Below, one piece after another: positions 2 through 54,706 of a stretch of DNA of 64,000 bases (within the stretch, counting starts at the first letter, position 1; every line of letters starts with the position of its first letter). The DNA lies in assembly GCA_030668875.1 (NCBI GenBank), contig DAOVER010000007.1:1-64000 (forward strand), written 5' to 3'. Origin of the DNA: Candidatus Heimdallarchaeota archaeon. GTDB lineage: Archaea > Asgardarchaeota > Heimdallarchaeia > Heimdallarchaeales > Heimdallarchaeaceae. The position numbers and the translations under genes are program-made. Under the pieces are notes generated by a model. That model saw only the letters and a program-made list of their open reading frames with translations, was not told the DNA's origin and ran no database searches.

Positions 2-523
2 AACAGATTGATCTATGGGCAAGCTTACTACAAACTGAAGGAGAAATGGAGGAGGAAATTGAAAGATGGGATTCATAAGTTAACGAGTTATTTGATAGAT
101 ATATGGGTCGAACGCGATCTCCATGAAGTAATTATAGGCTATAACTCTCTATGGAAACAAGGATTACATTTCTGGAAGAAAGTTACCCAGATGTTCGTCA
201 CCATCCCTTTTCTGAGAATCATCAATATCTTGAAGTATAAAGGAGCAGAACGAGGGATAAAGGTGGAAACCATCCCAGAACAATATACTTCTAAGAGCAG
301 TTTCCTAGACAACGAATTCCCCAAAAAACGAGTGAAGTACATAGGCAAACGAATCAAACGAGGGTTGTTCCGTTCTTCTAAAGGTTATTTAATCAATGCT
401 GATGTTAATGCTGCATACAATATATTAGTTAAAAGCGATCCGAAAGCCTTGCTTAAACGCAATGTGAACGGGGTAGGAGGATACGTGATGTATCCACAGA
501 GAGTGAGTATAGAACTCTTGTAG
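2..523 (+). CDS. tnpB: TnpB-type transposon nuclease, 3' part (5' end outside the window)
   Basis: C-terminal part of an IS200/IS605-family OrfB/TnpB protein; the frame is open to the window edge, so the real start and the first RuvC motif lie upstream. TnpB proteins are RNA-guided DNA nucleases of transposons. Visible are the IIGYNSLWKQ segment, then YTSKSSFLDNE, GKRIKRGLFRSSKG and INADVNAAYNIL, which holds the RuvC-III aspartate. The CPxCG zinc knuckles usual after YTSK are absent, as in a known TnpB subgroup with a YTSKxSFLDxE signature. A glutamate immediately before YTSK may be the rearranged catalytic Glu described for Fanzor-like TnpBs. Whether the element is intact cannot be judged here. 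Confidence 0.85.
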   Translation, partial: NRLIYGQAYYKLKEKWRRKLKDGIHKLTSYLIDIWVERDLHEVIIGYNSLWKQGLHFWKKVTQMFVTIPFLRIINILKYKGAERGIKVETIPEQYTSKSSFLDNEFPKKRVKYIGKRIKRGLFRSSKGYLINADVNAAYNILVKSDPKALLKRNVNGVGGYVMYPQRVSIELL

Positions 524-34273: not shown

Positions 34274-35260
34274 ATGAATCTTGTTATCAAAAGAGCTAAA
34301 GTTAGTAAGACTTTTCAAGTTGCTATTATCTGTCTTCTCATGAGTATTGAAACCTTCATTGGTTCCATTGAGATTAGAAACCCTCTTATGCTTGCTTCAG
34401 GAGTATTAGGAACTACATACTCAACTCTTCAACGAGCATATAAAGCAGGTTTAGGAGCAGTTATAACAAAAAGTATAGGACCACGTTCAAGAAGTGGAAA
34501 TCCCAATCCAAGTGTGTTTGCATTACATGAAATTAGAAGCTTGATTAATTCTGTAGGGTTGGCAAATCCTGGATATCAAACATTTAGACAAGATATTGAA
34601 CAATTAGTAAAAAGTGAGACTCCAACAGTAGTTTCTATCTTCGGAGAAAATCAAACCGAATTCTCAGAAGTACTTGATGGGTTAAAAGACCTTAACATCC
34701 TGGGGTTTGAATTAAATTTAAGTTGTCCAAATACTGAGAAAGGAGGGTCACAAATAGGGACCGATACTGAAGCAGTATATAGCATTGTAAAAGCATTGAA
34801 ATCCAAAACTAATCTTCCCCTATGGGTTAAATTAACTCCTAATGTTAGTGATATAATAGAAATTGCAGATGCAGCTGTTAAAGGAGGGTGTGATGCTATC
34901 GTTGCAATTAATACTCTAAAAGCCATGGTTATAGATATTCAAACCAAACAACCCATTCTAGGTTTCAAAAGAGGAGGATTGTCAGGTTCAGCAATAAAAC
35001 CGATAGGCATTCGTTATATTTATGATCTTTATGAAAACTTCAGAGAAAAAATTCCTCTAATTGGTGTAGGTGGGATTTACAAAGGAGAAGATGTTGTAGA
35101 ATATCTCCTAGCTGGAGCTACAGCTGTTGAAATAGGGTCTGCAATTGGTGTTGCTTATCCTGAAAACATTATAAGAACTATAACGATGAAGATTAAGAAA
35201 TACATGAAAGAACACGACTATTCATCTATTGGAGAAATTACAGGAGGAGCTCACAGATGA
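34274..35260 (+). CDS. pyrD: Dihydroorotate dehydrogenase, catalytic subunit (class 1B)
   Basis: FMN enzyme oxidising dihydroorotate to orotate, the fourth step of UMP synthesis. Signatures: NPLMLASGVLGTT, SVGLANPGY, ELNLSCPNTEKGG with the class 1B catalytic Cys, LPLWVKLTPNVSDI, AINTLKAMVIDI and PLIGVGGIYKGEDVVEYLLAGATAVEIGSA. It works with PyrK, whose gene overlaps it by 4 nt. ATG 34274 lies about 24 nt after TATTATATATTT, fitting a leaderless mRNA; family length instead favours ATG 34340, which would drop 22 hydrophobic, probably extra residues. Confidence 0.95.
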   Translation: MNLVIKRAKVSKTFQVAIICLLMSIETFIGSIEIRNPLMLASGVLGTTYSTLQRAYKAGLGAVITKSIGPRSRSGNPNPSVFALHEIRSLINSVGLANPGYQTFRQDIEQLVKSETPTVVSIFGENQTEFSEVLDGLKDLNILGFELNLSCPNTEKGGSQIGTDTEAVYSIVKALKSKTNLPLWVKLTPNVSDIIEIADAAVKGGCDAIVAINTLKAMVIDIQTKQPILGFKRGGLSGSAIKPIGIRYIYDLYENFREKIPLIGVGGIYKGEDVVEYLLAGATAVEIGSAIGVAYPENIIRTITMKIKKYMKEHDYSSIGEITGGAHR

Positions 35261-36114
35261 TAAAACAAACATTACCCAACACAAAACCAATTATGTGCAA
35301 AATTGTTGATAAAGAAGAAGAATGTGAAGATACTTACACATTTCTGCTTGAGGTTCCAGTAGAAGTAAAAAGTGCAAAACCAGGTCAATTCATTATGTTG
35401 TGGGTACCAGGAGTTGACGAATTTCCCATAGGAATAGCAGGTTTTGAGAATAATATATTGGAAATAGGTATTGCTAAAATGGGTGAGGGAACCGAAGCAC
35501 TACTTAAGAAGGAAATAGGTGACTATTTAGGTATTAGAGGTTTTTATGGAAAGCCATTCAAAACTCCAAAAAAAGTGAAAGTCAATCACCTGTTAATTGG
35601 GGGTGGTTTTGGGATGACACCGTTAAAGCTGCTTACAACCAATCTAATCCATCAAGAAGAAAAACAAGAAATTCATGTATTTGAAGGAGCAAGAAACAAA
35701 AGTAGGTTAATGTATCTGAAATGGTTTCAACATCTGCATGATGAGGGAAAACTCATTTTTCATGCATGTACTGATGATGGTTCATATGGGTATAAAGGGT
35801 TTCCAACTGTTGACCTGGAGAAATTTCTTCAAGAAGTTGAAGGTCCTTCAATCTTCTATGTAGCAGGACCAGAACGTATGATGAAAGCTATATTTGATAT
35901 TGGTAAAAAATATGATAAAGTCATAGACATGCAAATGAGTCTTGCTGATAGATATATGCGATGCGGTTTTGGTGTATGTAGCTATTGTGCAGTGGATCCA
36001 ACAGGATGGCGAATCTGTGTTGATGGACCAATTTTCAATACGAAACAGCTGGAACAGATAACTGATTTTGGCGTGTATAAAAGGTTAGAGACTGGAGAAA
36101 AAGAGAGGATTTGA
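35257..36114 (+). CDS. pyrK: Dihydroorotate dehydrogenase electron transfer subunit
   Basis: A 285-residue FAD/[2Fe-2S] subunit that passes electrons from PyrD to NAD. A ferredoxin-reductase-like barrel (AKPGQFIMLWVPG; PIGIAGF) comes first, then the nucleotide-binding domain (LIGGGFGMTPLKLL), and the cluster motif RCGFGVCSYCAVDPTGWRIC supplies four Cys near residues 235-255. The start overlaps the pyrD stop (ATGA), indicating translational coupling, and pyrC follows after 3 nt. Confidence 0.95.
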   Translation: MIKQTLPNTKPIMCKIVDKEEECEDTYTFLLEVPVEVKSAKPGQFIMLWVPGVDEFPIGIAGFENNILEIGIAKMGEGTEALLKKEIGDYLGIRGFYGKPFKTPKKVKVNHLLIGGGFGMTPLKLLTTNLIHQEEKQEIHVFEGARNKSRLMYLKWFQHLHDEGKLIFHACTDDGSYGYKGFPTVDLEKFLQEVEGPSIFYVAGPERMMKAIFDIGKKYDKVIDMQMSLADRYMRCGFGVCSYCAVDPTGWRICVDGPIFNTKQLEQITDFGVYKRLETGEKERI

Positions 36115-36117
36115 CCA

Positions 36118-37344
36118 ATGGTAATATTTTCAAATCTTAGGGTATGGGATATAGAAAAAAGAGAATTTGTGCACCAAGATTTAGATTTTCAAAAAGATGA
36201 ATCAGCAATAAATTTTTCTAACACTGAAATAGATGCATCTGAATTAATAGCTCTCCCTCCTTTGGTTGATATACATGTTCATTTTCGTGAACCAGGCTAT
36301 GAGCATAAGGAAAACATCCTTTCTGGAGCAAAAGCGGCACTCTCTAGCGGAATTTTCACTGTTCTAGATATGCCAAATACAAACCCTATTACAGATTCAG
36401 TAAACACAATTTTGCAGAAAAAAGAATTAGCAGAAAAACAACATTATGTGAAATTACTTGTTGCTTCGGCTTTAACAGAAAGAAATTATAATGAATTGGA
36501 TGAGATTAATGTTCATGCAGATGCGTATAAGGTGTTTATGTCAGAATCCTTCGGTAATCTTTCTGTTAGCTATGAGACAATTGAAAATAGTTTAGCAAAA
36601 TTGGAAAGTATTGAATCGAGTAAACCGATTTTCTTCCATGCTGAAGACCCTAAAATTCTTGAGAATAGCAAATCATATAGTAGTCATAATAAAAGAAGAC
36701 CTCCTGAAGCAGAAGCCATTGCAATTCAGCAAGTGCTATCTTGGGCTCTTGATTTTCCTAAATTGAAATTCCATATAACTCATATTAGTAGCGGTTTATC
36801 ATTGAGAATTTTAGAACTGTCTAAACATGAAAACGTAACTTTGGATACTTGCCCTAGATACATTTACTTTGACCAAACCTCAGAGCTTGAAGACAAATTG
36901 AAGCAAGTTAATCCCCCTCTTAGAAACCGTATCGATAGTGATCTACTTCTGAAATCATTAGCTACAGGTCTTATAGATATGGTGTGTTCAGATCATTCTC
37001 CACATACACTCGAAGAAAAGCTGGAGAAATCTATCAGTGGAATGCCAGGTGTTCAGGAACTTGTTCCATCAACACTTTCATTGATAAATAAAGGGGAAAT
37101 TGAATGGGATAGAGCAATAGAAGCTCTGTATACCTTTCCTTCTTCATTACTCAATCTCCCGAAAATAGAGCTAAATCAAAATATGATTATTTTGAACATG
37201 TCTGATCCGATAGAAATAACTAAAAACTGGGTGAAATCAAAGGCTAAATGGTCTCCATTTGAGAAACAGCTGTTTGTTGGTCAGATGTTTTATGCTGTTA
37301 AAGAAGGTAAAATAGTATTCGAGAATGAGAACTATATTAACTAA
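36118..37344 (+). CDS. pyrC: Dihydroorotase
   Basis: A 408-residue amidohydrolase closing carbamoyl-aspartate to dihydroorotate. Metal ligands: LVDIHVHFREPGYEHKEN (HxH), the Lys in AYKVFMSES (probably carboxylated), IFFHAEDP, KFHITHISSG and MVCSDHSPHTLEEK (catalytic Asp). This is the class I (large) type. It starts 3 nt after pyrK; pyrF follows after 58 nt, completing a pyrDKCF run. Confidence 0.95.
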   Translation: MVIFSNLRVWDIEKREFVHQDLDFQKDESAINFSNTEIDASELIALPPLVDIHVHFREPGYEHKENILSGAKAALSSGIFTVLDMPNTNPITDSVNTILQKKELAEKQHYVKLLVASALTERNYNELDEINVHADAYKVFMSESFGNLSVSYETIENSLAKLESIESSKPIFFHAEDPKILENSKSYSSHNKRRPPEAEAIAIQQVLSWALDFPKLKFHITHISSGLSLRILELSKHENVTLDTCPRYIYFDQTSELEDKLKQVNPPLRNRIDSDLLLKSLATGLIDMVCSDHSPHTLEEKLEKSISGMPGVQELVPSTLSLINKGEIEWDRAIEALYTFPSSLLNLPKIELNQNMIILNMSDPIEITKNWVKSKAKWSPFEKQLFVGQMFYAVKEGKIVFENENYIN

Positions 37345-37402
37345 AATAGTACTTCTAGAGTTCAAAAACAATAATTAAAAATGGTTGATTATTTCTATAC
37401 TT

Positions 37403-38188
37403 ATGAGTGTTAGAGCGCCTGTTTTTGTTAAAAAGTATGAGGAAGTAGCTAAGAAGAAGAATAGTATTCTTAGTGTTGGTTTGGATCCAGCAATACCTCG
37501 TCAAAGAGATAAGAATGTGATACCTACAGAGGAAAGAGTAAGCTTTATGGAGAATATTATCGATCTGGTTTCTCCATATACAAGTGTAATCAAGATAAAT
37601 CGTCAATATACCTTAGGATTAACCATTGATGATATTCGTACAATTAACAGGCAAATACATTCAAAGAAAATGCTCTCCATGTCTGACCACAAACTAGGCG
37701 ACATAGGTTCTTCTAACGAATCAGCTATATTCTGGTTTAAAGAGGAAGAATTTGATGCCTTTACATTTAATCCCTATAGTGGTAATGTGCTTGAAACAAC
37801 AGAAATGGCTCATAAACTTGACTTAGGTATCATAGTGCTTACTTTGATGTCAAACCCACAAGCGATCCTACAAAAACACGCAAACGTGCAAGGAAAACCC
37901 CTGTTTCAGCATATCGCCAGTTTATGTAAAGAAGCTAATTCAGATGGATGCGTTATAGGTGCAACAGCTCATGTTGAACCATCTGATATATTAGAAATTA
38001 AGCGAATTGTTGGTGATAATACTATAGCACTAGCACCTGGTGTGGGTGCTCAAGGTGGGAGTGCTGATACGCTTCTTAAGAGCTTTAAGACAAAAACTAT
38101 GGTTAATGTAAGTAGAGGAGTAATCTATTCTCAGTCTCCAGGAGAAAAAGCGAAAGAAATACAAGAAAAGCTTAATGGGCTTTTGTGA
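37403..38188 (+). CDS. pyrF: Orotidine 5'-phosphate decarboxylase (type 2)
   Basis: A 262-residue OMP decarboxylase, the last step to UMP. The catalytic Asp-x-Lys-x-x-Asp is DHKLGD (D95, K97, D100); SVGLDPA precedes it, and TFNPYSG and LTLMSNP match the type 2 subfamily. Phosphate is held by APGVGAQGG (211-219) and Arg238 in VSRGVIYS. ATG 37403 is chosen over TTG 37385, which adds only six residues. A second, altered copy lies at 53891, which makes this the likely true PyrF. Confidence 0.95.
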   Translation: MSVRAPVFVKKYEEVAKKKNSILSVGLDPAIPRQRDKNVIPTEERVSFMENIIDLVSPYTSVIKINRQYTLGLTIDDIRTINRQIHSKKMLSMSDHKLGDIGSSNESAIFWFKEEEFDAFTFNPYSGNVLETTEMAHKLDLGIIVLTLMSNPQAILQKHANVQGKPLFQHIASLCKEANSDGCVIGATAHVEPSDILEIKRIVGDNTIALAPGVGAQGGSADTLLKSFKTKTMVNVSRGVIYSQSPGEKAKEIQEKLNGLL

Positions 38189-38210: not shown

Positions 38211-38810
38211 TTACAAATTATTTTCTATTAATTTCTTGTCTTGTTCCGAAATATATTCTTCATCTATTTCCAAGCATAATTTGAATATTTCATTTATCGT
38301 AATAAAAGAATGAAGTTTTATATTTAGATTTTCTAATTCTTCCAATTTACTTTGACTTCGATCGATAAGTACGATCATATTATCGACTACAAAACCATTA
38401 TCTCTTAATGCTAATATTCCAGGTATTTTACTACTACCTGTAGTAATTAGATCATCTATGAGTACAACTCTTGATGCAGATGGAATACTTCCTTCAATTA
38501 TTTTTTTCAATCCGTGTTCTTTCATTTGAGGTCTAACAATAATTGAGGGGATACCTAACTTGTATCCAGCAACTGCAGAAAAAGGAATACCAGCTACTGC
38601 AACTCCAGCTAATGCATCAACCCCATGAATCTTCTTGATCATATCTATATAACAGTCAATGACGAATTCGAAAGTTTCTGGGTAGGAAGAAATCAATCTT
38701 AAATCAACATAAAACCAAGACTTCTTTCCAGATTTAAGTGTGAAATCTCCATATTTCAAAATCTTATTTTTCAAGAGATGTTCAGTTAGCTCTCTTTTCT
38801 TTACGTCCAT
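38211..38810 (-). CDS. pyrE: Orotate phosphoribosyltransferase
   Basis: A 199-residue type I phosphoribosyltransferase converting orotate plus PRPP to OMP. Seen are GDFTLKSGKKSWFYVDLRLISSYP at the N-terminal hood, ALAGVAVAGIPFSAVAGYKLGIP, VRPQMKEHG with the flexible-loop Lys, and the PRPP motif VVLIDDLITTGSSK. It is convergent with pyrF and lies 12 nt downstream of guaA on the same strand, so it may be cotranscribed with the purine genes there. Confidence 0.95.
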   Translation of the reverse strand: MDVKKRELTEHLLKNKILKYGDFTLKSGKKSWFYVDLRLISSYPETFEFVIDCYIDMIKKIHGVDALAGVAVAGIPFSAVAGYKLGIPSIIVRPQMKEHGLKKIIEGSIPSASRVVLIDDLITTGSSKIPGILALRDNGFVVDNMIVLIDRSQSKLEELENLNIKLHSFITINEIFKLCLEIDEEYISEQDKKLIENNL

Positions 38811-42671: not shown

Positions 42672-43451
42672 TTAAGTGTCCTCTGGATAAGATTTTAGTA
42701 CCTTGAATGGAATTCTATTGAGTTCTGTTATCTTTCCCCAGTGCTTGCCAACGCCAGCAAGGATTATTACTTTGATTGGAACGCCACTTGAACGACGAAC
42801 AAGTTCAACTAATGCTTTTTGAGTTGATCCTGATCTAATTACATCATCAACAATCAATACTCGTTCATCATGTTTAATGAATTTTTCAGGAAGATAAATT
42901 GTTTCAACTCTTCCAGAAGTCATAGATTGAATGTCCTCAGCAATACATTCAGTTGTTCCCAAAGGTTTTTTCCTACGAGCATATACACAATCTATGTTGA
43001 GTAAATGTGCTAACGTCAGTGCAACAGGTATTCCATCCACTTCAGCTGTTATTATCTTATCCACATCTCTTGGGATAATGCCTTGTTGAATGGCTAAAAA
43101 TAGAATAGCTTTCAGTGTTTTTGAATCATTCAGCAAGTATGTATTATTTACAGCTGTATTGCCAAAACTATCTGTCCATTCATGAATATGACTGCCAATT
43201 AGACTTTTAATTGTTAAACCTAGATCTTTATTTCCTATCAAAACCTTGAGAATTTCACTTTTCAATTTTGATTTAGGCAAAGCTTTCCCATTAATATATC
43301 GTGATAGATTAGCAATAGAAACTTCAACATCTGATTTTGCTAAATAATCTTTCATAGATTCCAATGTTTCAAACCCTTTGAAAGCCATTTTTAGAAGGTT
43401 AAGAGTCATCAACTTTTCTTGAGCATCAATATAACTTTCTGCTGAACTCAT
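42672..43451 (-). CDS. Phosphoribosyltransferase-like transcription regulator with N-terminal HTH
   Basis: A 259-residue protein joining a helix-turn-helix (about 25-70, VEVSIANLSRYINGKALPK) to a type I PRTase domain with the PRPP-binding motif VLIVDDVIRSGST (about 203-215). This architecture recalls archaeal PRTase regulators (GfcR-like) and, by analogy, bacterial PurR, which senses PRPP. It is transcribed divergently from the purC operon and precedes purP2, so autoregulation and control of purine genes through the shared 240-nt spacer is a reasonable inference. A TATA-like box (about 43475-43486, minus strand) lies about 25-30 nt upstream. Confidence 0.82.
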   Translation of the reverse strand: MSSAESYIDAQEKLMTLNLLKMAFKGFETLESMKDYLAKSDVEVSIANLSRYINGKALPKSKLKSEILKVLIGNKDLGLTIKSLIGSHIHEWTDSFGNTAVNNTYLLNDSKTLKAILFLAIQQGIIPRDVDKIITAEVDGIPVALTLAHLLNIDCVYARRKKPLGTTECIAEDIQSMTSGRVETIYLPEKFIKHDERVLIVDDVIRSGSTQKALVELVRRSSGVPIKVIILAGVGKHWGKITELNRIPFKVLKSYPEDT

Positions 43452-52813: not shown

Positions 52814-53731
52814 TTAATCAAGTCCCAAATATTTTAAAATTAAGGCCATTCTTATCCAAACACCATTATGTGCTTGTTCAAAGTATCTAGAATGCTTGGT
52901 TTTGTCAATTGCATAATCAATCTCATCCACACGAGGAAGAGGATGTAATATGATAAATCGATCCTTAACGTTCTTGATGTCTTCCGTAGATATTTGATAA
53001 ACCCCTTTGAGCCTTTCATAATCCACAGGATCTGGAAATCGCTCTTTTTGAATTCTAGTCATATAAAGAACATCAAGATCAGGGATGATATCTTTTAGAT
53101 TCTCTTCAGTATTAAATTTGAATCCATTTTCCTTTAATCTCAATGCTACATTTTTTCTTAATTTAAGAGCTGGAGGAGCTATCAGATGAAGATCTATATT
53201 ATCATATTTTGCCAAAGCGAATAGAAGTGAAGGAATAGTTCTTCCATAGAGTAAGTCACCCATTACACCAATACTTAGATTGTCGATTCCTTTAAACTCC
53301 TTCTTAATGGAATAAAGGTCAAGTAAAGCCTGAGTTGGGTGTTCTTGCGAACCTGTTCCTCCAGATATCACTGGAATTGAAGCAAATTTTTTGGCTATCT
53401 CTCCTACCCCTTCAATATAGTGTCTAATGACCGCAATATCAGAATAATGATTAATCATTCTTAAAGTATCAGCAATACTTTCACCCTTAACAGTGCTACT
53501 TACTTTAGCATCGGTAAAACCTAAAATTTGTCCACCTAGTCTTAGCATGGCACTCTCAAAAGAAAGCCTAGTTCTAGTGCTTGGTTCAAAGAATAATGAT
53601 GCTAAGATTTTTCCTTTACATTTATCTGCAAATTGGTCAGGGTTTGCTTCTATTTTGGAAGCAAGAGAAAAAATCTGTTCAACAAAATCTTTGGAAATGG
53701 TCCTTGTTGAGAATAAATGTTTTGGTATCAT
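52814..53731 (-). CDS. pyrB: Aspartate carbamoyltransferase catalytic chain
   Basis: A 305-residue transcarbamylase making carbamoyl-aspartate. FFEPSTRTRLSFESAMLRLGG is the carbamoyl phosphate site; KGESIADTLRMINHY, SGGTGSQEHPTQALLDLY and ILHPLPRVDEI are the other signatures. It forms the ATCase complex with PyrI, encoded just downstream. Its promoter region is shared divergently with the second OMP-decarboxylase-like gene. Confidence 0.96.
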   Translation of the reverse strand: MIPKHLFSTRTISKDFVEQIFSLASKIEANPDQFADKCKGKILASLFFEPSTRTRLSFESAMLRLGGQILGFTDAKVSSTVKGESIADTLRMINHYSDIAVIRHYIEGVGEIAKKFASIPVISGGTGSQEHPTQALLDLYSIKKEFKGIDNLSIGVMGDLLYGRTIPSLLFALAKYDNIDLHLIAPPALKLRKNVALRLKENGFKFNTEENLKDIIPDLDVLYMTRIQKERFPDPVDYERLKGVYQISTEDIKNVKDRFIILHPLPRVDEIDYAIDKTKHSRYFEQAHNGVWIRMALILKYLGLD

Positions 53732-53798
53732 TTTTATACCTTTTTTCCAAAAAGAGTAAAAAGTTACTAAGTTATAAAAGATGTGGTGAGCAAGAGAA

Positions 53799-53810: not shown

Positions 53811-53890
53811 AGTGTAAAATAAATCCAACAAGCTGATTTTTCATGAAAGCTAAAACAAGGATTAAATATGGAAAGGTGAATCTTTTCTAC

Positions 53891-54706
53891 ATGAGTTCAA
53901 TTCTTCCCAGTTTCTTAGACAAATATGCGGAAGTTGTTAAGAAAAAGAATAGTATACTATGCGTTGGTCTAGATCCTGCATTACCAATTCAAAGAATGAG
54001 ACAAGTAATTCCAAATGATGATAGACTCGAATTTATGAAAAGAATAATAGCTGATGTAGCACCTTATGCAAGCGTAATAAAAATGAATAGACAGTACTTA
54101 ATAGGTCTTACAGCTGCTGAGATACGACAATTAAATGTCCTGATACATCAACAGGGAATGCTTTCAATAGTTGATCACAAACTTGCAGATATCAGTTCTT
54201 CAAACTCTTCTGCTATTTTCTGGATAAGAGAGGAAGGTTTTGATGCCTTTACTTTTAATCCTTATGGTGGGAATATCGAGGAAGCTACGAGAATGGCCCA
54301 TGAGAAGAAGCTAGGAATAATTGTAGTAACCTTGATGTCTAATCCCCAAGCAATAATTCAAAAACTGCTTAATATCTACGAAAGTCCCTTCTTTTTACAT
54401 GTTGCAGAAATATGTAAAGTTGCTAAATCAGATGGTTGTATGATTGGAGCTGGAAGTCATATTAAACTAACAGATATTGCCAAAATTAAACAGTTGATTG
54501 GAAATAATGCAATTGCTCTGGTTCCAATAATGGGACAATATAAAGAAAATGCAAAACATACAATATTGCATTTTGGAGATAAAACAATGATTAGTGTTGG
54601 TGGAGCAATTTTATACTCGGATAATCCACCAGAAAAAGCAAGACAATACCAAGAACAGTTTAACGCTTATAGAGATAAATTGAGTCAGAAGAGTTTAGAT
54701 ATTTAG
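53891..54706 (+). CDS. OMP decarboxylase paralogue with altered phosphate-binding site
   Basis: A 271-residue homologue that aligns without gaps to the PyrF at 37403 through about residue 244. The catalytic Asp-Lys-Asp is kept (DHKLAD; D95, K97, D100), as are CVGLDPA and TFNPYGG. The phosphate loop PGVGAQGG (212-219) is changed to PIMGQYKE, and the phosphate-binding Arg238 is Gly (ISVGGAILYS). It probably no longer binds OMP in the normal way and may be a different lyase or a regulatory relative. GGTGA (53875-53879) supports ATG 53891; ATG 53843 would add 16 residues. Confidence 0.9.
   Translation: MSSILPSFLDKYAEVVKKKNSILCVGLDPALPIQRMRQVIPNDDRLEFMKRIIADVAPYASVIKMNRQYLIGLTAAEIRQLNVLIHQQGMLSIVDHKLADISSSNSSAIFWIREEGFDAFTFNPYGGNIEEATRMAHEKKLGIIVVTLMSNPQAIIQKLLNIYESPFFLHVAEICKVAKSDGCMIGAGSHIKLTDIAKIKQLIGNNAIALVPIMGQYKENAKHTILHFGDKTMISVGGAILYSDNPPEKARQYQEQFNAYRDKLSQKSLDI

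What the first reader, a model, noticed from the sequence alone, without database searches (positions are those of the whole stretch)
53891..54706. Second OMP decarboxylase that kept its catalytic core but lost phosphate binding
The two pyrF-like proteins align without gaps over about 244 residues. D95, K97 and D100 are identical, but PGVGAQGG (212-219) became PIMGQYKE and Arg238 became Gly. These residues hold the OMP phosphate, which contributes much of the binding energy in known OMPDCs. A conserved decarboxylase core without phosphate grip suggests a new substrate or an effector-binding role, and the gene lies opposite pyrB with a palindrome between them.
Basis: partly seen in the sequence, partly recalled or inferred. 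Interest (0 to 1): 0.62.

Follow-up and report, generated by a model that had tools for sequence, protein, structure and literature searches.

The report
PyrF twin lacking its phosphate grip
A duplicate of the UMP-making enzyme OMP decarboxylase in Heimdall archaea has kept its whole catalytic core but lost the pocket that holds the substrate's phosphate, and it survives in relatives that have thrown away the rest of the pathway, so it probably acts on a different, phosphate-free molecule.

Summary
The gene at 53891-54706 encodes an ungapped paralogue (56% identity over 259 aa) of the canonical PyrF at 37400-38188. The change is not private to this genome: 16 of 21 held genomes of the genus (Heimdallarchaeota) carry the same paralogue, a monophyletic clade. 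In the 15 complete copies every catalytic, ribose and pyrimidine contact is invariant (D28, K64, D95, K97, D100, I101, S104, S150, P212). The canonical-invariant columns replaced in all copies (V184, T188, G213, A216, G218, G219, N235) all lie at the phosphate end of the barrel; Arg238 is lost in 14 of 15. The strongest new evidence is a natural experiment. Nine genomes have lost canonical pyrF together with pyrE; most also lost pyrB, pyrC and the purine operon. All nine keep the paralogue, under purifying selection. A tree of flanking genes puts these losses in at least three lineages. The paralogue therefore does not need OMP made by PyrE, is not a partner of PyrF, and is not decaying. Best reading: a decarboxylase core retargeted to a non-phosphorylated (or 5'-altered) orotidine/orotate-like substrate in salvage or catabolism. 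The reaction itself is inferred. A ligand-binding pseudoenzyme is the main rival.

The parts
53891..54706 (+). Divergent PyrF paralogue (DIV): OMP-decarboxylase fold, catalytic core kept, phosphate site lost
54080..54082 (+). Lys64 (K42 of M. thermautotrophicus OMPDC), invariant
54173..54190 (+). D95-H-K97-L-A-D100, the DxKxxD catalytic motif, invariant in all copies
54440..54454 (+). Residues 184-188 (MIGAG), end of strand beta-6: canonical V184 became Met/Trp and T188 (T159 of Mt OMPDC) became Gly/Ala/Ser
54524..54547 (+). Residues 212-219 (PIMGQYKE), replacing the phosphate-gripper loop PGVGAQGG
54602..54604 (+). Gly238, replacing the phosphate-binding Arg (R203/R235)
53861..53869 (+). Conserved TATA-like box 22-30 nt before the DIV start codon
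53738..53760 (.). Imperfect palindrome just upstream of pyrB; part of the pyrB promoter, not clearly of DIV
52814..53731 (-). pyrB, aspartate carbamoyltransferase, divergent neighbour
37400..38188 (+). Canonical pyrF with full phosphate site
38211..38810 (-). pyrE, orotate phosphoribosyltransferase; lost in exactly the genomes that lost canonical pyrF
34274..36114 (+). pyrD-pyrK, kept next to DIV in reduced genomes
42672..43451 (-). Phosphoribosyltransferase with an N-terminal extension (adenine-PRT-like, PRK08558), also kept next to DIV in reduced genomes

Best explanation
DIV arose by duplication of pyrF within or just before this Heimdallarchaeota genus. It is still a catalyst: the Lys/Asp network that stabilises the C6 carbanion, the ribose-binding residues and the pyrimidine-binding Ser are all kept. 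It no longer works on OMP. The phosphate pocket has been dismantled and partly filled with bulkier residues (M or W184, I or L213, M, L or Y214). Its likely reaction is decarboxylation of an unphosphorylated or 5'-modified 6-carboxypyrimidine, orotidine first and orotate second, feeding uridine or uracil into salvage (UPRT is encoded across the genus) or nucleobase catabolism, independently of de novo UMP synthesis. Shown: sequence, conservation, phylogeny, selection, and retention after loss of pyrE and pyrF. Inferred: that it is catalytic, the substrate, and the pathway.
For: Core residues invariant in 15/15 complete DIV proteins; all seven phosphate-site columns tested are invariant in 13 canonical PyrFs and none is invariant in DIV. 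The AlphaFold model (pLDDT 90.9) matches OMPDC crystal structures best, and the replaced columns fall at the ends of strands beta-6, 7 and 8. DIV is monophyletic, 100/98. Canonical pyrF and pyrE co-occur in 12/21 genomes and are both absent in the other 9, all of which have DIV. On contiguous contigs the lost block is missing and pyrD-pyrK-PRT-DIV remains. At least three losses on a tree of flanking genes. dN/dS of DIV between DIV-only genomes is mostly 0.02-0.15. Literature: removing the gripper side chains of yeast OMPDC cuts kcat/Km for OMP from 1.1e7 to 0.037 M-1 s-1 but only 9-fold for a phosphate-truncated substrate (PMC12874384), so such a core remains a decarboxylase best suited to phosphate-free substrates. 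UPRT is present in nearly all genomes.
Against: No activity is known. The same review puts the phosphodianion at 12 kcal/mol and the ribosyl fragment at 10 kcal/mol of transition-state stabilisation, so a phosphate-free substrate, and orotate above all, would need compensating interactions not visible in sequence. No source of orotidine or orotate is evident in genomes without pyrB, pyrC and pyrE, and no NCS2-type nucleobase permease was found in 21 genomes. PyrD and PyrC have lost catalytic residues in some of these same genomes, so pseudoenzymes do arise here.
Confidence: 0.5

Rival explanations
1. DIV is a non-catalytic ligand-binding protein (pseudoenzyme) that senses a pyrimidine nucleoside or base and regulates nucleotide salvage, perhaps with the neighbouring phosphoribosyltransferase.
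For: Phosphate loop and Arg lost; in reduced genomes DIV sits divergently beside the PRT gene; PyrD and PyrC in some of these genomes have become apparent pseudoenzymes with intact ORFs.
Against: A binding protein has no obvious need to keep Lys64, Asp95, Lys97 and Asp100 invariant over 15 divergent copies, while PyrD and PyrC in the same genomes lost theirs.
Confidence: 0.25
2. DIV is still an OMP decarboxylase with weak phosphate binding, acting on OMP formed by a promiscuous phosphoribosyltransferase from scavenged orotate.
For: Gln217 kept in 8 of 15 copies and Arg kept in G012; a PRT gene is retained next to it.
Against: Loop glycines, Thr188 and in 14 of 15 copies the Arg are gone; loss of the gripper side chains costs 12 kcal/mol on OMP in yeast OMPDC (PMC12874384). 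No pyrE in the nine DIV-only genomes. The PRT resembles adenine PRT rather than orotate PRT.
Confidence: 0.12
3. DIV is retained for assembly, as a scaffold or complex with PyrD-PyrK, whatever its own chemistry.
For: pyrD-pyrK and DIV survive together in the reduced loci although PyrD lost its SCPN motif in four genomes; PyrK keeps its conserved motifs as seen in the alignment.
Against: Does not explain the invariant DIV active site; no interaction data.
Confidence: 0.08
4. DIV is a heteromeric partner or subunit of canonical PyrF (OMPDC active sites are shared between subunits).
For: D100/I101/S104, expected to be donated across the dimer interface, are conserved.
Against: Nine genomes have DIV and no canonical PyrF; four or five have PyrF without DIV.
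Confidence: 0.02
5. DIV is a decaying duplicate without function.
For: Loss of a functional site.
Against: Purifying selection, intact ORFs in 15/15 complete copies, retained through at least three losses of the pathway.
Confidence: 0.03

Closest known systems
OMP decarboxylase, PyrF subfamily 2 (TIGR02127) / PF00215
   Same: Fold, DxKxxD motif, Lys on beta-2, Pro on beta-7, pyrimidine-binding Ser; sister to canonical PyrFs of the same genus
   Different: No phosphate-gripper loop, Arg or Thr; 61.4 bits against a TIGR02127 cut-off of 110.6; occurs without pyrE
Gripper-deconstructed yeast OMPDC variants (Q215A/Y217F/R235A), described in PMC12874384
   Same: Catalytic core without phosphodianion grip
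   Different: Laboratory mutants with alanine or Phe substitutions; DIV is natural, under selection, with bulky residues at some of the altered positions
3-hexulose-6-phosphate synthase / 3-keto-L-gulonate-6-phosphate decarboxylase
   Same: Same suprafamily and barrel
   Different: Phosphorylated sugar substrates; DIV has the Lys and Pro signature residues reported as unique to OMPDC (PMC3584854) and no match to these models
Iso-orotate decarboxylase (thymidine salvage; PMC6305744)
   Same: Decarboxylates a free pyrimidine carboxylate in salvage
   Different: Metal-dependent enzyme acting on iso-orotate; no sequence relation tested or apparent

Membership tests
OMP decarboxylase (functional PyrF) | PF00215 match over the gathering score | tested here: met
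   61.5 bits against 27
OMP decarboxylase (functional PyrF) | NCBIfam equivalog TIGR02127 cut-off | tested here: not met
   61.4 against 110.6; the canonical copy scores 109.4, just under
OMP decarboxylase (functional PyrF) | Catalytic K plus DxKxxD and pyrimidine-binding Ser | tested here: met
   Invariant in 15/15 complete copies
OMP decarboxylase (functional PyrF) | Eight-residue active-site signature D,K,D,K,D,H,P,R (PMC3584854) | tested here: not met
   Arg replaced in 14/15; the six D/K/P positions kept; the beta-4 position (H, or N in Plasmodium) not settled
OMP decarboxylase (functional PyrF) | Phosphate-gripper loop PGVGAQGG and beta-6 Thr | tested here: not met
   G213, A216, G218, G219 and T188 replaced in all copies
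OMP decarboxylase (functional PyrF) | Genomic coupling to orotate phosphoribosyltransferase (pyrE) | tested here: not met
   9 of 16 genomes with DIV lack pyrE
OMP decarboxylase (functional PyrF) | Decarboxylates OMP to UMP | not testable with these tools
   Needs an assay
HPS / KGPDC | Match to TIGR03128 or KGPDC models | tested here: not met
   No match up to E 0.01, whereas two other genes of the genome match

The most novel reading that the evidence does not exclude
A natural OMPDC-derived orotidine or orotate decarboxylase that needs no phosphodianion activation and gives a route from orotidine/orotate to uridine/uracil that bypasses OMP.
Probability: 0.25. Interest if true: 0.82.

Novelty: new variant of a known kind. 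Interest (0 to 1): 0.6.

Why it matters
OMPDC is the textbook case of an enzyme driven by binding energy from a remote phosphate. Experiments separated its catalytic core from its phosphate gripper by mutation; here evolution appears to have done the same and kept the result under selection in several lineages. It makes directly testable what such a core does when freed from the phosphate, and would show how one of the most specialised enzymes known can be retargeted. It also warns that a genome with a 'pyrF' hit need not make UMP: in nine of these genomes the only PyrF-like gene is this one.

Tried and rejected
PyrF heteromer partner (rejected by DIV-only genomes). Private loop change or decay (rejected by orthologues and dN/dS). 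HPS/KGPDC identity (two other genes of the genome match those models; DIV does not). The kept PRT as a replacement orotate PRT: it scores best as adenine PRT-like, so retention in purine auxotrophs is expected. PyrDK feeding orotate to DIV in every reduced genome: weakened, because PyrD has lost its SCPN motif in G005, G008, G012 and G015. The palindrome as a shared operator: it occurs once in the window and sits in pyrB's promoter. Literature searches for orotate decarboxylase, phosphate-less OMPDC paralogues and Heimdall pyrimidine auxotrophy gave no precedent, in an open-access library only. The DIV-peptide scan of 84,980 genomes found only Heimdallarchaeota records, but its sensitivity is low.

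Full report
Observation. The ORF at 53891-54706 aligns without gaps to the canonical PyrF at 37400-38188 over 259 residues (56% identity). Both match PF00215. The canonical copy lies in a pyrD-pyrK-pyrC-pyrF cluster with pyrE convergent; the paralogue (DIV) lies divergently from pyrB. Two further PF00215 genes in the genome are hexulose-phosphate-synthase-like. The orthologues come from named records of Candidatus Heimdallarchaeota.

Conservation. Among 21 held genomes of the genus, 16 carry DIV and 12 a canonical PyrF; 7 have both. DIV is absent from the other genomes of the class that were searched, none of which has a second copy of comparable score. In G003, G013 and G017 pyrB directly adjoins the gene that otherwise follows DIV, so DIV is truly absent there. 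Across 15 complete DIV proteins, D28, K64, D95, K97, D100, I101, S104, S150, P212 and G215 (D20, K42, D70, K72, D75, I76, T79, S127, P180, G183 of the M. thermautotrophicus enzyme) never vary; the chance of ten random columns all being invariant is 1.4e-5 (a rough yardstick that ignores relatedness). Of 69 columns invariant in 13 canonical PyrFs, seven are replaced in every DIV copy: 184, 188, 213, 216, 218, 219 and 235. All lie at the end of strands beta-6, beta-7 and beta-8 of the AlphaFold model (pLDDT 90.9), where OMPDC holds phosphate. Arg238 is Gly in 14 of 15; G012, basal in clade II, keeps Arg, so either Arg was lost twice or G012 regained it. Gln217 is kept in 8 of 15. The best structural matches are OMPDCs.

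Natural experiment. Canonical pyrF and pyrE are present together in 12 genomes and absent together in 9 (G001, G005, G007, G008, G010, G012, G015, G016, G020); all nine have DIV. This is not only MAG incompleteness. On contiguous contigs of G020, G010, G008 and G005 the order is pyrD-pyrK-PRT-DIV followed by the usual flank, with pyrC, pyrF, pyrE, guaA, purP, the purine operon, pyrI and pyrB missing; G001 is the same but keeps pyrC, and G015 shows pyrD-pyrK-PRT-DIV up to a contig end. pyrB orthologues are absent from these genomes apart from a 38-40% second carbamoyltransferase. A tree of ten flanking genes, independent of the pyrimidine genes, needs three changes between full and reduced states, forced by well-supported branches; regain of an identically ordered block is unlikely, so these are read as three losses. 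DIV was kept each time. dN/dS between DIV-only genomes is 0.017-0.147 for nearly all pairs (one pair with dS 0.09 gives 0.25), comparable to PyrD, PyrK and the PRT and often lower.

What it most likely does. The literature gives a quantitative frame (PMC12874384): removing the three gripper side chains of yeast OMPDC lowers kcat/Km on OMP from 1.1e7 to 0.037 M-1 s-1 but only 9-fold on a phosphate-truncated nucleoside; the phosphodianion is worth 12 and the ribosyl part 10 kcal/mol. A core with intact ribose and base contacts but no gripper is therefore expected to be poor on OMP and to retain activity on phosphate-free nucleoside-like substrates. Orotidine or a 5'-modified orotidine fits the kept ribose contacts best; orotate is second. 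UPRT is encoded across the genus, so uracil could enter UMP. These steps are inference. Against them: no source of the substrate is evident, no NCS2 permease was found, and PyrD or PyrC in several of these genomes have lost catalytic residues, so a binding-only role cannot be excluded, though DIV, unlike them, has kept its own.

Comparison with the known. DIV belongs to the OMPDC family by descent, fold and core. It fails the features that define a working OMPDC: the signature Arg (PMC3584854), the gripper loop and the association with pyrE. It works like an OMPDC core; that it is an OMP decarboxylase is not supported. No natural phosphate-gripless OMPDC homologue was found in the papers available here, but subscription literature was not searchable.

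Promoter region. The palindrome at 53738-53760 is unique in the window and lies between pyrB's start and a TATA-like box conserved in five genomes. DIV has its own conserved TATA-like box at 53861-53869, supporting the start at 53891.

Basis of residue mapping. The equivalence of DIV residues to numbered OMPDC residues rests on the alignment with canonical PyrFs, the signature table in PMC3584854 and the residue names of solved mutants listed (for example T159, P180, V182, Q185, V201, Y206); the assignment of T188 to T159 is by alignment only.

Noticed in passing
L148, L147, L149, L143 (PyrD of G005, G008, G012, G015); window counterpart 34274-35260: In four of the genomes that lost the pathway, PyrD has lost the SCPN motif (SYSS, SCSS, loop deleted, SYLN) and changed NSVG to SSVG, yet the ORF stays open and dN/dS stays around 0.1-0.2: apparent pseudoenzyme or retargeted flavoprotein with PyrK.
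   Followed up: partly
L127 (G001 pyrC) and L060 (G012 pyrC); window counterpart 36118-37344: PyrC kept in two reduced genomes has lost conserved residues: SSDHSPHT became SSSHSPHT in G001; FHAED became IQAED and HITH became HATL in G012.
   Followed up: partly
L164:3649-9589 (G000 contig C61), L165:2912-14841 (G010 contig C19): A nucleobase-catabolism-like cluster: two carbamoyltransferases (ATCase-like and OTC/YgeW-like), carbamate kinase, hydantoinase/dihydropyrimidinase, and in G010 an SsnA-like amidohydrolase and a PreA/PyrD-like protein.
   Followed up: partly
window 42672-43451 and L108, L109, L115, L116, L127: A phosphoribosyltransferase with an N-terminal extension (adenine-PRT-like) is kept between two separate deletions in the reduced genomes, next to DIV.
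   Followed up: partly
L010 (G012 DIV): The only DIV copy that keeps the phosphate Arg (VGRAI) although its loop is already changed; useful as an evolutionary intermediate.
   Followed up: no
window 8-523 and L165:12087-13379: ORF at the window edge resembling the end of a TnpB-like ORF seen in G010; probable mobile element.
   Followed up: no
whole genus: None of 21 genomes has a xanthine/uracil permease (PF00860), unlike 11 of 14 control genomes.
   Followed up: no
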